A DNA stretch of 64,000 bases from NCBI RefSeq assembly GCF_018128245.1, contig NZ_CP072378.1, positions 248,001-312,000 on the forward strand. The letters are read 5' to 3'. The notes beneath the pieces are model-generated. The model was not told where the DNA came from. It did not search any database and saw only the letters and a program-made list of their open reading frames with translations. Made by a program: the position numbers and the translations under genes. Below, piece after piece: positions 9,527 to 14,890 of this stretch. Within the stretch, counting starts at the first letter, position 1. Each line of letters opens with the position of its first letter. The stretch is from Leptotrichia sp. oral taxon 221 (GTDB lineage Bacteria > Fusobacteriota > Fusobacteriia > Fusobacteriales > Leptotrichiaceae).

Positions 9527-10516
9527 ATGGTAGGAATTATCGTGGCAAGTCACGGTGAATTTGCTGCTGGTATTAAACAATCGGCTTCAATGATTCTGGG
9601 AGAAGCAGAGTTATTGGAATCAGTTGTGTTTATGCCGAGTGAAGGACCAGATGACTTATATAAAAAAATTCAAGACGCCATTGAAAAATTAGGGACAGAA
9701 GAAGTTCTATTTTTAGTTGATTTATGGGGAGGAAGTCCATTTAATCAGTCTAATCGTTTCTTTGAAGAAGCACCTGAAAAGAGAGCAATTGTTGCAGGAC
9801 TTAATTTACCAATGTTACTTGCAGCATTGTCAGAAAGAGAAGATTATGACACAGCTCATGAAGTAGCAAAAGCTATTGTTCCAGAAGGGAAAGACCAAGT
9901 TAAAGTTAGACCTGAAGAATTGGAACCAAAAGAAGCAAAAGCAACTGCAGCAGCACAAGATGACACACCAAAAGGTGCAATTCCAGAAGGAACTGTTATA
10001 GGTGATGGTAAAATTAAATTTGTATTGGCTCGTATCGATACTCGTTTGTTACACGGACAAGTTGCTACAAGTTGGACAAAAGCAACTAATCCAAACAGAA
10101 TAATCGTTGTGTCAGATTCTGTTTCAAAAGATGAATTACGTAAAAAATTAATCGAACAAGCGGCGCCTCCAGGTGTACGTGCACATGTTATCCCACTTGA
10201 TAAATTGGTGGAAGTTTCAAAAGATCCAAGATTTGGAAATACAAAAGCATTGTTGTTATTTGAAAATCCTCAAGATGCACTTTATGTAATTGAAAAAGGT
10301 GTGGATATTAAAGAGTTAAATGTAGGTTCGATGGCACATACTGTTGGAAAAGTTATGGTTAATAACGTACTTTCAATGGATCAAAAAGATGTTGACACTT
10401 ACAAAAAACTAAGAGATTTAGGTGTAAAATTCGACGTAAGAAAAGTTGCTGCTGATAAGAGAGCAGATTTATTCAAATTAATTTCAGAAAAAGCAAATGA
10501 AGGATTAAAACTTTAA
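9527..10516 (+). CDS. manX: PTS mannose-family EIIAB component
   Basis: A 329-residue cytoplasmic phosphocarrier of a sugar phosphotransferase system. EIIA (1-125) carries the phosphorylated His9 in VASHGEFA and the LWGGSPFN motif. An Ala/Pro/Glu-rich linker spans about 128-160. EIIB (about 162-329) has RIDTRLLHGQVATSW with phosphorylated His176. Phosphate passes HPr-EIIA-EIIB-sugar at the EIIC/EIID membrane complex. The A-B fusion matches ManX/LevDE-type systems, and the sugar may be mannose, glucose or another hexose. ATG 9527 follows an aggaggagg site. First gene of the operon. Confidence 0.93.
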   Translation: MVGIIVASHGEFAAGIKQSASMILGEAELLESVVFMPSEGPDDLYKKIQDAIEKLGTEEVLFLVDLWGGSPFNQSNRFFEEAPEKRAIVAGLNLPMLLAALSEREDYDTAHEVAKAIVPEGKDQVKVRPEELEPKEAKATAAAQDDTPKGAIPEGTVIGDGKIKFVLARIDTRLLHGQVATSWTKATNPNRIIVVSDSVSKDELRKKLIEQAAPPGVRAHVIPLDKLVEVSKDPRFGNTKALLLFENPQDALYVIEKGVDIKELNVGSMAHTVGKVMVNNVLSMDQKDVDTYKKLRDLGVKFDVRKVAADKRADLFKLISEKANEGLKL

Positions 10517-12550: not shown

Positions 12551-12667
12551 TTGGCAATTTCAAAAAATACAAAAGTTTTATTTAACACAAAAGGAAATTT
12601 GTTGAGTGGAATGGTAGGAAATAAAAATGGTGATATTTTAGTAGGCGATAAAGCATTTGAATTTTAT
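12551..12667 (+). CDS. manO: manO (DUF956), 5' exon interrupted by an IStron
   Basis: The first 39 codons of a DUF956/ManO protein, which in many bacteria follows the mannose-PTS EIID gene. TTG at 12551 is 6 bases after an aaaggag site. The reading begins LAISKNTKVLFNTKGN and ends GDKAFEFY, where the family continues with FYNSRxP...IPWEEV. At 12668 an inserted element brings an immediate TAA. The last exon base is T. Joined to 14630-14890 this gives an unbroken 125-codon frame, a normal DUF956 length. Function of the family: thought to adjust expression or activity of the adjacent PTS. Confidence 0.85.
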
Positions 12668-13200
12668 TAAATAGTGTAAGAACACTCGCGACTTTAGTCG
12701 TGAGATGAATTGCACGAAAATTTTAGTAAGCATATAGGGAAACTTGTATGTAGACACGGAGCAAAACCGTGCAACAAAGAAACTGAATTGCTGGGAACTC
12801 TTAAAGCTAGTATAACCACAACATAATACCTTCGTTCAAATATGGTATAAGTGTGAAGGTAGCGAAAGCAGAAAAAATATACTAGATGGTGCAAGGTTAA
12901 ATCCTAAACACTGAGCCATATAGAAAGGCATACAATAGACAATCAGCAGCTAAGCCTGAAAAGGAAAGTTCAACGACTATCCCTCGTGAGGGGAGTACAA
13001 TACAAGCGATAGGTATTGGAAGTGGTTTCGCCTAAGGTGTTGAGATACACTATGGATAAGATATAGTCTGTGCTTGTTAGAGATAACAAGAAGTTCAAGG
13101 CTAATCTCCTTAATTTATTAAGGAGTATATATGCCAAGAGAACTGCATAAGTAGTAGCGAACTTATGTGAACGACGCTTCCCGCTGTTGTGGGGTTTTAA
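12668..13200 (+). ncRNA. Group I intron ribozyme core of the IStron (3' splice site at 14629)
   Basis: Core elements are visible. P-like segment gaattgctgggaactc at 12785-12800. P4: tgctg (12789-12793) with cagca (12944-12948). R element gttcaacgacta at 12968-12979. S element aagatatagtc at 13058-13068. P7: gacta (12975-12979) with tagtc (13064-13068). A P1 can form between exon TTTAT (12663-12667) and gtaag (12676-12680), placing the expected U.G pair at the 5' splice site. The insert ends in G (14629), the conserved last intron base. Splicing should therefore join 12667 to 14630. The end coordinate of the core is approximate. Confidence 0.85.
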
Positions 13201-13267
13201 AAACTTTAAAAATATTTAAAAATAAATAAAAATATTACTTTTTTGACAGATAAAATGTAGAATACAT

Positions 13268-13275
13268 GGTATAAT
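13268..13275 (+). promoter_or_regulatory. Internal promoter for tnpB inside the IStron
   Basis: TGgTATAAT is an extended -10 box 28 bases before the tnpB start. A perfect TTGACA lies at 13243-13248, but the 21-base spacer is long. It would let tnpB be expressed independently of manO transcription. Confidence 0.55.
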
Positions 13276-13302
13276 ACCTCTGATGAAAAGGAGGTGATAT
13301 CT

Positions 13303-14550
13303 ATGTATTTAACTTTAAAACAACAAGTAAAACACCTTAGCAAAAAAGAATTTAGAAATTTAAAATATTTGTGCCATATAGCTAAAAATTTAAAGAATCA
13401 AGCTATATACAATGTTAGACAATACTATTTTGAAAATAAAAAGTATTTAAGTTATAATGAAAACTATAAAATGCTTAAAAATATTGAGAACTATAAGAAG
13501 TTAAATTCTAATATGGCTCAGCAAATTCTAAAAGAAGTAGACGGAAGTTTCAAATCATTTTTTGGACTTTTAAAACTTGCTAGGAATGGTCAATATAATT
13601 TTAAAGATATAAAATTACCTAAATATCTTGCTAAAGATGGTTTTACAACTCTTGTTATAGGATTTGTTAGATTAAAAGACGATATTCTGATAGTTCCTTA
13701 TTCAAATTCGTTTAAGAAAACTCATCAGGAAGTTAAAATTAAGCTGCCACCAGTATTGAAAGGTAAGAAGATAAAAGAAATTAGAATAATACCAAAACAA
13801 CATTCTAGGTACTTTGAAATTCAATATACTTATGAGATAGAAGAAATTCAAAGGGAATTAAATAAAGAAAATGCACTAGGAATTGATTTAGGTATAGATA
13901 ATCTTTGTACTTGTGTAACTAATAACGGAGCATCATTCATAATAGATGGTAGAAAATTAAAATCAATAAATCAATACTATAACAAGACAAATGCAAAATT
14001 GCAAAGCATTAAAGATAAGCAAAAGATAGAGCATATAACATTAAGACAAAAGAGAATAGCTAGAAAGAGAAGTAATCGTATAGAAGATTATCTTTCAAAA
14101 GCAGCAAGAATAATAATAAATTATTGTCTTAATAATGATATAGGAAAACTAGTTCTAGGATACAATGAAGATTTTCAAAGGAAATCAAATATTGGAAGTA
14201 TAAATAATCAAAACTTTGTAAATATACCATATGGAAAATTAAGAGATAAATTAATATATCTATGTAAACTATATGGAATAGAATTTAAACTGCAAGAAGA
14301 AAGTTATACATCAAAAGCAAGTTTCTTTGATGGAGATGAAATTCCAATATATGATAAAGAAAATCAAAAAGAATATATATTCAGTGGAAAAAGAATAAAA
14401 AGAGGACTATATCAAACAAGCACAGGTAAAATCATAAATGCGGATTGTAATGGAGCATTAAATATATTAAGAAAAAGTAAAGTTGTGGATTTAAGTATCC
14501 TATACAATAGAGGTGAACTGAACACACCTAAAAGAATAAGGGTAGTGTAA
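13303..14550 (+). CDS. tnpB: TnpB RNA-guided nuclease of the IStron (IS1341-type)
   Basis: A 415-residue TnpB, an RNA-guided DNA endonuclease that favours retention of its element. ATG 13303 is 8 bases after ggagg; an in-frame GTG at 13294 overlaps that site and is rejected. RuvC-I is ALGIDLGIDN (Asp195). The region where RuvC-II Glu usually lies reads LVLGYNEDFQRKSNIG, while a conserved EESYTSKASF (Glu332/333) follows. RuvC-III is NADCNGALNIL (Asp381). The CxxC...CxxC zinc finger usual between RuvC-II and III is missing. This matches the TnpB subgroup with a relocated active-site glutamate. The gene lies between intron core and right end. Confidence 0.93.
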   Translation: MYLTLKQQVKHLSKKEFRNLKYLCHIAKNLKNQAIYNVRQYYFENKKYLSYNENYKMLKNIENYKKLNSNMAQQILKEVDGSFKSFFGLLKLARNGQYNFKDIKLPKYLAKDGFTTLVIGFVRLKDDILIVPYSNSFKKTHQEVKIKLPPVLKGKKIKEIRIIPKQHSRYFEIQYTYEIEEIQRELNKENALGIDLGIDNLCTCVTNNGASFIIDGRKLKSINQYYNKTNAKLQSIKDKQKIEHITLRQKRIARKRSNRIEDYLSKAARIIINYCLNNDIGKLVLGYNEDFQRKSNIGSINNQNFVNIPYGKLRDKLIYLCKLYGIEFKLQEESYTSKASFFDGDEIPIYDKENQKEYIFSGKRIKRGLYQTSTGKIINADCNGALNILRKSKVVDLSILYNRGELNTPKRIRVV

Positions 14551-14629
14551 AGCTATCAAACTTCTTAGAAAATTTTTAAATGTTTTTAAAGATTTTAGAA
14601 CCCTGCGACTTTAGTCGTGGGAGGTTCAG
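14480..14629 (+). ncRNA. Predicted TnpB guide RNA (omega RNA) scaffold, 3' part of the IStron
   Basis: In this superfamily the guide RNA overlaps the 3' end of tnpB and the right end, and the guide is the flanking host DNA. Here the right-end hairpin (14601-14623, around gcgactttagtcgtg) is followed by gaggttcag, and the guide would start at 14630 (AATTCGAGG...). The 5' boundary given is a guess; the 3' boundary is fixed by the element edge. The same edge is the 3' splice site, so splicing and guide formation compete for one transcript. Confidence 0.6.
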
Positions 14630-14890
14630 AATTCGAGGAATCCAGAAGATTATGTTCAAATTCCGTGGGAAGAAATAAAACTTGTTAGAGCTCAAATATT
14701 TTTTAATGATAAATATATAAGAGGATTTTTTGTTGATACAAAAAGTGCAGGAACGTTTAATTTTGTAGTGAAAAATGCAGGTAAAACGTTGAAAACAATG
14801 CGAGATTTTATTGGGAATGAAAAAATTGTTAGAAATAAACCGTTATTTTCGATTAAAAATTTATTTTCTAGGAAGAAAAGCGAAAAATAA
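14630..14890 (+). CDS. manO: manO (DUF956), 3' exon after the IStron
   Basis: 86 codons, without a start of their own, reading NSRNPEDYVQIPWEEIKLVR through to FSRKKSEK and TAA. This is the C-terminal two thirds of a DUF956 protein (family motifs: IPWEE, then a beta-rich GTFNFV segment and a basic tail). Frame continuity with 12551-12667 is exact (FEFY|NSRNP). Without RNA splicing the gene is a pseudogene; with it, the protein is complete. Followed by the DUF2721 gene 33 bp later. Confidence 0.85.
   Translation, partial: NSRNPEDYVQIPWEEIKLVRAQIFFNDKYIRGFFVDTKSAGTFNFVVKNAGKTLKTMRDFIGNEKIVRNKPLFSIKNLFSRKKSEK

What the first reader, a model, noticed from the sequence alone, without database searches (positions are those of the whole stretch)
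12551..14890. manO is interrupted in DNA but exactly restored if the insert is removed as an intron
Seen: 12551-12667 encodes the N-terminus of a DUF956/ManO protein ending FEFY; 14630-14890, in frame, begins NSRNPEDYVQIPWEE. Joining them without adding or losing a base rebuilds a 125-codon frame across the family motif FYNSRxP...IPWEE. The exon side of the left junction ends in U and the insert ends in G, the two bases group I splicing requires. Inference: a sugar-PTS accessory gene is kept functional at the RNA level despite a transposon in it.
Basis: partly seen in the sequence, partly recalled or inferred. Interest (0 to 1): 0.88.

Follow-up and report, generated by a model that had tools for sequence, protein, structure and literature searches.

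The report
Self-splicing IStron inside sugar-uptake gene manO
A transposon that carries its own self-splicing intron sits inside a sugar-uptake accessory gene, and the sequence evidence indicates that it cuts itself out of the RNA so that the gene can still work; this kind of element is already known.

Summary
manO (DUF956) is split into 12551-12667 and 14630-14890 by a 1962-bp insert, 12668-14629. The halves match adjacent profile positions, and 20 uninterrupted homologues have no extra or missing codon at the junction. The insert is a group A IStron: a class IA2-like group I intron fused to an IS200/IS605-type tnpB, with the published marks (TTTAT upstream, TCAG end, U·G in P1, IS part after GAACGA, no tnpA). 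LbISt1 of Leptotrichia buccalis is a published member.

Exact rejoining alone would not prove splicing, since such transposons insert without target duplication. Stronger evidence comes from 54 copies in 8 genomes. The intron structure covaries. 34 of 53 bounded copies lie inside genes, all in sense, against at most 1 of 16 copies of an intronless IS605. One copy interrupts the only full dnaB-type gene found in its genome; another splits the start codon of the only guanylate kinase gene found. The splice guide matches the transposon target and changes with it (TTTAT/GUAAG, TTGAT/GUCAR).

New member of a known kind. No RNA was seen; RT-PCR remains decisive.

The parts
12551..12667 (+). manO (DUF956) 5' exon, TTG start, 39 codons
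   Evidence: Pfam DUF956 positions 1-37
12663..12667 (+). TTTAT: transposon target and last five bases of the 5' exon
   Evidence: 54 of 54 copies; pairs with GUAAG in P1
12668..14629 (+). the IStron, 1962 bp
   Evidence: boundaries shared with 53 other copies; no missing codons in homologues
12668..13174 (+). group I intron part, P1 to P9.2 and the GAACGA motif
   Evidence: Intron_gpI 55.4 bits over window 12680-13090; structure
12685..12704 (+). left-end hairpin CTCGCGAC-TTTA-GTCGTGAG
   Evidence: helix 4
12726..12730 (+). internal guide GUAAG, pairs with UUUAU
   Evidence: 53 of 54 copies; helix 1
12779..12784 (+). P3, 5' strand (partner 13024-13029)
   Evidence: helix 7, added by hand; nearly invariant
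12975..12980 (+). P7, 5' strand (partner 13063-13068)
   Evidence: helix 18, added by hand; nearly invariant
13303..14550 (+). tnpB, 415 codons
   Evidence: OrfB_IS605 E 1.7e-30 and Cas12f1-like_TNB E 7.6e-9
14601..14621 (+). right-end hairpin CCCTGCGAC-TTTA-GTCGTGGG
   Evidence: the most common last-36-base string is shared by 24 of 53 copies
14626..14629 (+). TCAG, 3' end of the element; 14629 would be the terminal G of the intron
   Evidence: 53 of 54 copies
14630..14890 (+). manO 3' exon, 86 codons plus stop; its first bases would also be the guide of TnpB (inference)
   Evidence: Pfam DUF956 positions 38-111

Best explanation
12668-14629 is a group A IStron that inserted 3' of TTTAT in manO, in the sense direction. 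SHOWN by sequence: the boundaries, the intact halves of manO, a covarying group I structure whose internal guide GUAAG pairs with the target TTTAT, and an open tnpB. INFERRED: the precursor RNA folds; guanosine attacks after the U of UUUAU; the freed exon attacks after the terminal G at 14629; the exons are ligated and restore the 125-codon ManO frame; translation of unspliced RNA stops at the UAA at the junction. Because the transposon's target and the intron's 5' splice site are the same five bases, nearly every sense insertion brings its own splice site. The 3' end with the adjacent exon bases probably also serves as guide RNA of TnpB, which would cut empty sites and so retain the element; that RNA and splicing would compete for the same 3' end. 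Movement most likely relies on a TnpA encoded elsewhere.
For: Adjacent DUF956 halves and 20 of 20 gapless homologues. 54 copies with the same ends. Structure with 99.2% of cells paired, 16 pairs changed on both sides and 53 such cells, against 7.6 and 11.7 in shuffles. 34 of 53 bounded copies intragenic, all sense, against 1 of 16 for an intronless IS605 (Fisher P 4e-5). P for all sense is 1.6e-3 with the neighbour rate and 1.0e-4 with site density. dnaB split at profile 1-133|134-255, the only full DnaB_C match in G048. Start codon AT|G of the only guanylate kinase match in G045. Guide changes with target in 10 of 10 TTGAT introns. In-vivo splicing of a group B IStron, BcISt1, is published (PMC4227781, section read).
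Against: No RNA data. cmscan did not report the intron, and one search listed only 2 of the 3 copies in this genome, one of them (uvrB, 49.6 bits) below the cut-off. P1, P3 and P7 hardly vary, so for them there is no covariation. 50 of 54 copies point with the replication fork, which explains part of the sense bias. manO is not known to be essential. No promoter was identified. 10 of 54 copies lack a full-length tnpB with all three motifs searched, and L120 lacks the guide, so not every copy is sound.
Confidence: 0.88

Rival explanations
1. manO is simply knocked out: the intron is dead or inefficient here, and the perfect junction only reflects IS200/IS605 insertion without target duplication into a dispensable gene.
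For: Exact rejoining needs no splicing. 10 of 33 family genomes have no DUF956 match at all, so the gene can be lost. No RNA was seen.
Against: The catalytic core, guide and terminal G of this copy match the family. The intragenic and sense-only pattern and the dnaB and gmk cases show that copies of this family are tolerated where a knock-out would not be. Both manO halves are open and unmutated. The split manO of G047 differs from its uninterrupted relatives mostly at silent sites (dN/dS 0.022 and 0.042; the same calculation failed for the window's own gene).
Confidence: 0.08
2. The gene is restored at the DNA level: the element is excised without a scar by a TnpA acting in trans, in part of the population.
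For: IS200/IS605 excision is scarless (recalled). Y1 TnpA genes exist elsewhere in this genome, C1:1521799-1522194 and C1:956173-956544.
Against: It would not explain a conserved, covarying ribozyme or growth with dnaB interrupted. The intronless IS605 copies belong to the class with its own TnpA, yet they are not found in genes.
Confidence: 0.02
3. The insert is a mis-assembly or chimera in this genome.
For: None found.
Against: Same boundaries in 54 copies from 8 genomes, and the same manO site independently in G047 (L103).
Confidence: 0.01

Closest known systems
Group A IStrons: LbISt1 (Leptotrichia buccalis), CdISt1, FnISt1, FnISt2; Tourasse et al. 2014, PMC4227781 (abstract and sections 10, 14, 15, 18 and first part of 20 read; passages elsewhere)
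   Same: Target (TTTAT is one of the three listed), TCAG end, IA2-type intron, IS200/IS605 OrfB behind GAACGA, truncated or missing OrfA, mostly intragenic.
   Different: Length 1962 against 1760 for LbISt1; LbISt1 is listed once per strain, whereas up to 18 copies per genome were found here (a capped count). Sequence identity to LbISt1 could not be tested.
IStrons of Fusobacterium nucleatum subsp. polymorphum (PMC1924603, passages seen)
   Same: Intron followed by tnpB, inserted behind a pentanucleotide.
   Different: Their target is TTGAT, as for the ten related introns here. That paper predicts most copies to be inactive.
Group B IStrons, e.g. BcISt1 (PMC4227781) and the IStron of Zedaveinyte et al. 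2024, Science 385:eadm8189 (only a reference-list entry seen; content recalled)
   Same: Intron plus tnpB; splicing shown in vivo for BcISt1; splicing and guide RNA in conflict (recalled).
   Different: IS607 type, GG-ending target, 3' end CGG.
Intronless IS605 element of the same family of genomes (16 copies read)
   Same: IS200/IS605 family; 93-96% identical copies spread over several of the same genomes.
   Different: No intron match, different target (TTAAC in 15 of 16, TTAAT in one), has tnpA, hardly ever in genes.

Membership tests
Group A IStron | inserted behind TTGAT, ATTAT or TTTAT; no target duplication | tested here: met
   TTTAT in 54 of 54 copies; no extra codons in 20 of 20 homologues
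Group A IStron | 3' end TCAG | tested here: met
   window 14626-14629; 53 of 54 copies
Group A IStron | P1 with the U·G pair flanked by paired bases on both sides | tested here: met
   columns 5-13 with 82-90, 28 of 28 sequences
Group A IStron | IS part behind P9.2 after GAACGA or a similar motif | tested here: met
   GAACGA at 13169-13174; GAAC[GA]A found in 53 of 54 copies, not in L120
Group A IStron | IS200/IS605 OrfB; OrfA may be missing | tested here: met
   OrfB_IS605 match; no OrfA-like reading frame in the insert
Group A IStron | subterminal palindromes at both ends | tested here: met
   seen at 12685-12704 and 14601-14621; left one supported; binding by TnpA not tested
Group A IStron | inverted-repeat stem enclosing the ORF region | not tested
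   not examined
Group A IStron | splices in vivo | not testable with these tools
   no RNA
Group I intron, class IA2 | P3-P8 core with P7.1, P7.2, P9.1, P9.2 | tested here: met
   all these helices at 99% or more of cells paired; P9.0 and P10 not tested
Group I intron, class IA2 | match to Rfam Intron_gpI | tested here: inconclusive
   55.4 bits, over the cut-off of 50; not reported
RNA-guided nuclease TnpB | RuvC motifs and a guide RNA from the right end | tested here: inconclusive
   GID[LS]G, EESYTSK and NADCNGALNI with full length in 44 of 54 copies (roles of the motifs recalled); guide RNA and cutting not tested; no PDB sequence match

The most novel reading that the evidence does not exclude
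In this bacterial family an IStron has become an obligatory part of core gene expression: at least one species can replicate its chromosome only if a transposon splices itself out of the dnaB message. The same sites (nagB in three genomes, manO in two) stay occupied while the resident copies are exchanged, through TnpB cutting of empty alleles and conversion from other copies.
Probability: 0.25. Interest if true: 0.75.

Novelty: new member of a known kind. Interest (0 to 1): 0.45.

Why it matters
It turns an apparent knock-out into a probably working gene, so annotating manO, uvrB, a cobalamin adenosyltransferase and a MarR-type regulator of this genome as broken would probably be wrong. The family offers natural experiments, above all an interrupted dnaB with no second full copy found, in which splicing efficiency, guide-RNA production and host fitness could be weighed against each other. 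The matched change of target and guide (TTTAT/GUAAG, TTGAT/GUCAR) shows in sequence how an intron and a transposon are fitted to the same five bases.

Tried and rejected
Rfam cmscan on the window and on the region gave no intron hit; not resolved. TnpB had no sequence match in the PDB. The promoter scan gave no clear excess over shuffles (18 against 14.8, sd 4.4), so no tnpB or manO promoter is claimed. The element tree does not group same-site copies, and the alignment looks mosaic, so I do not read insertion histories from it. dN/dS of the window's own manO could not be computed (errors). A base bias right after the junction (no C at +1) looked strong against the whole window but shrank to P about 0.01 with a phase-matched coding background. 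A plain 50:50 test of sense bias was dropped as unfair, because copies follow the replication fork. Phage and plasmid searches gave partial relatives; the best covers 85% at 72.5% identity on Finegoldia magna plasmids. The genome-contig scan gave 6 tnpB relatives from other groups, not followed. IStron with dnaB in the held papers: 1 paper, where the two dnaB passages seen concern an intein. Four further intronless copies of another type (L190-L193) were fetched and compared but not put through the coding test.

Full report
What is there. The window encodes a mannose-type PTS: EIIAB (PTSIIB_sorb and EIIA-man domains) at 9527-10516, two further reading frames to 12290 that look like EIIC and EIID (by eye), then manO. 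manO (DUF956) starts at a TTG at 12551 and is cut after 39 codons by a 1962-bp insert, 12668-14629; the remaining 86 codons and the stop follow at 14630-14890. The two pieces, scanned apart, match DUF956 positions 1-37 and 38-111. Of 33 genomes of the family, 23 have a DUF956 match and two of these have it split: the window's genome and G047. Twenty uninterrupted homologues, and the two split ones with exons joined, align without a gap at the junction (one further uninterrupted homologue was not picked up).

What the insert is. Its ends and content fit the published definition of group A IStrons (Tourasse et al. 2014, PMC4227781; sections 10, 14, 15, 18 and the first part of 20 read): TTTAT target, TCAG end, IS part behind GAACGA, IS200/IS605 OrfB, no OrfA. 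LbISt1 from Leptotrichia buccalis is in that paper's table. A search of the held library for Leptotrichia with group I intron listed 4 papers; by title only that one is about IStrons.

Copies. A search of 33 family genomes with the intron part found matches in 13. I fetched every listed match that spans nearly the whole query (50) and one match in two pieces: 51 places in 7 genomes, plus 3 in the window's genome, 54 in all. Scoring was capped at 18 candidates per genome, and G045 and G048 had 91 and 68 candidates, so the counts for these are lower bounds. Shorter matches were not fetched, except all ten places with a related intron. By genome: G045 18, G048 15, G002 6, G047 5, G043 3, G042 3, G000 3, G044 1. 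54 of 54 left ends read TTTAT|TAAATA; 53 of 54 right ends end in TTCAG. L102, whose right end was not found, is left out of the counts of 53.

The ribozyme. RNAalifold on 28 of the 54 copies, with nine exon bases included, finds unaided that UUAU|UAAA pairs with UUUAGUAA, with U·G at the splice site. The full structure, with P3 and P7 added by hand, has 126 pairs: 99.2% of cells paired, 16 pairs with changes on both sides and 53 such cells, against 7.6 and 11.7 in shuffles and at most 4 and 16 when slid. P8 and peripheral helices carry the covariation; P1, P3 and P7 are nearly invariant, so they rest on conservation. The window's RNA folds at z = -5.0. Rfam Intron_gpI scores 55.4 bits, where the uvrB copy scores 49.6 (below the cut-off of 50) and the third copy is not listed; cmscan reports none.

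Target and guide are fitted to each other. GUAAG, complementary to UUUAU with a U·G pair at each end, is in 53 of 54 copies (L120 lacks it). Ten related introns, two in the window's genome and eight in G043, G047, G048 and G017, lie behind TTGAT instead, and 10 of 10 have GUCAG or GUCAA: a U-A pair has become G-C. The five bases that the transposon needs are the five bases that the intron needs. By eye, two of the ten (G047 in L124, G017 in L125) are followed by a tnpB-like reading frame.

Does it splice? Exact rejoining follows from the way IS200/IS605 elements insert, so I looked for evidence that depends on splicing. (a) Position: with a codon model trained on the window, 34 of 53 bounded copies have at least 30 open codons on both sides in the best-scoring frame; all 34 are in sense, none antisense. 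The other 19 lie near starts or stops or between genes. (b) Control for direction: 50 of 54 copies point with the replication fork (dnaA places), and 96 of 116 neighbouring ORFs share the element's direction. TTTAT is rarer in sense than in antisense in window ORFs (196 against 291). The chance of 34 of 34 in sense is then 1.6e-3 with the neighbour rate and 1.0e-4 with site density added; after removing three repeated sites, 2.8e-3 and 2.4e-4. (c) Control element: an IS605 with tnpA and tnpB but no intron, 16 of the 17 listed copies fetched, 13 of the 16 from genomes that also hold IStrons. 1 of 16 passes the same test at exact boundaries, as an antisense call with negative coding scores on both sides (L180); allowing boundary shifts of up to 3 bases, again 1 of 16 passes, another copy (L183). 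34 of 53 against 1 of 16 gives Fisher P 4e-5. The control has a different target (TTAAC in 15 of 16), so it is not a perfect match. (d) Essential-type genes: in G048 the only full DnaB_C match is split at profile positions 1-133 and 134-255 by a copy; a third, weak match (positions 4-108) has counterparts in the three other genomes tested. In G045 a copy splits the start codon (AT|G, GAGG upstream) of the only guanylate kinase match. That these genes are essential is established knowledge, not tested here. (e) Pieces scanned apart give adjacent halves for SmpB, MTHFR, QueA (L075, L091), HIGH_NTase1 and others; 18 of the 63 pieces of relatives' genes scanned had no family hit.

Other insertions in this genome. 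uvrB is split after ...VSAIY and resumes GLGSPEAY; the 3' piece hits UvrB domains, the 5' piece ResIII. A cobalamin adenosyltransferase has its start codon split AT|G behind GAGG. A MarR-type gene is split by a TTGAT-type intron.

How it would work. Transcription of the man operon, or from a promoter that was not identified, yields a precursor; the intron folds and splices, and ManO is translated. Unspliced RNA meets UAA at the junction. UAAAUAG gives a stop within seven bases in two of three phases; phase 1, in which ribosomes would read further into P1, is under-represented among the 34: 3 against 8.1 expected, with phase 2 at 22 against 12.2 and phase 0 at 9 against 13.7 (P 0.002). The excess of phase 2 over phase 0 is not explained; Tourasse et al. 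report more than half of intragenic IStrons in frame and make the same argument about ribosomes. TnpB looks intact, and its guide would be exon 2 itself; that is inference. The insert has no tnpA-like frame; TnpA genes occur elsewhere in this genome.

Same sites, different residents. nagB (Glucosamine_iso for the 3' piece of L082) is hit at the same base in three genomes and manO in two, yet same-site copies are not neighbours on the element tree. On the manO tree, G000 sits with G042 and G045, and G047 with G048, all four partners... that is, G042, G045 and G048, being uninterrupted. Either insertions recur or copies convert one another; the alignment looks mosaic. This is open.

Verdict. A group A IStron, new member of a known kind, very probably spliced. 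What is added is the control comparison, the dnaB and gmk cases, and the matched change of target and guide.

Noticed in passing
L122 (G048), L121 (G043), L123 (G047), L090: One gene (DASHPYA motif, recalled from CbiJ/CobK) holds two TTGAT-type introns at what look like the same places in three genomes; in G048 it also holds a full IStron, whose TTTAT site is empty in G043. A bacterial gene with three introns.
   Followed up: partly
L111 (G048:C1:689546 region), L106 (G045:C1:449178 region): IStron in the only full DnaB_C match of G048, and in the start codon of the only guanylate kinase match of G045.
   Followed up: yes
L082, L093, L114 (nagB); L103 and the window (manO): The same base is occupied in different genomes by copies that are not neighbours on the element tree.
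   Followed up: partly
G002:C1:875437 and 839984, G042:C1:1643869, G048:C1:880949 and 1984672, G047:C1:761331: Matches of 71-83 bases, 86-91% identical, to only the left end of the IStron: solo ends or a small related element.
   Followed up: no
34 intragenic IStrons in the fetched genomes and G000: Codon-phase bias: 22 in phase 2, 9 in phase 0, 3 in phase 1, against 12.2, 13.7 and 8.1 expected; also A at the second exon base in 21 of 34 against 11.7 expected.
   Followed up: partly
L070 (G043), L075 (G048), L091 (G042): queA (Queuosine_synth) is hit by IStrons at three different places in three genomes.
   Followed up: no
NC_010371.1:124328-125935 and NZ_CP085956.1:148879-150486: Finegoldia magna plasmid stretches 72.5% identical to bases 295-1962 of the element, annotated as TnpB: perhaps unannotated IStrons.
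   Followed up: no
54 IStron copies: 50 of 54 point with the replication fork, as expected for elements that insert into the lagging-strand template (the expectation is recalled).
   Followed up: partly
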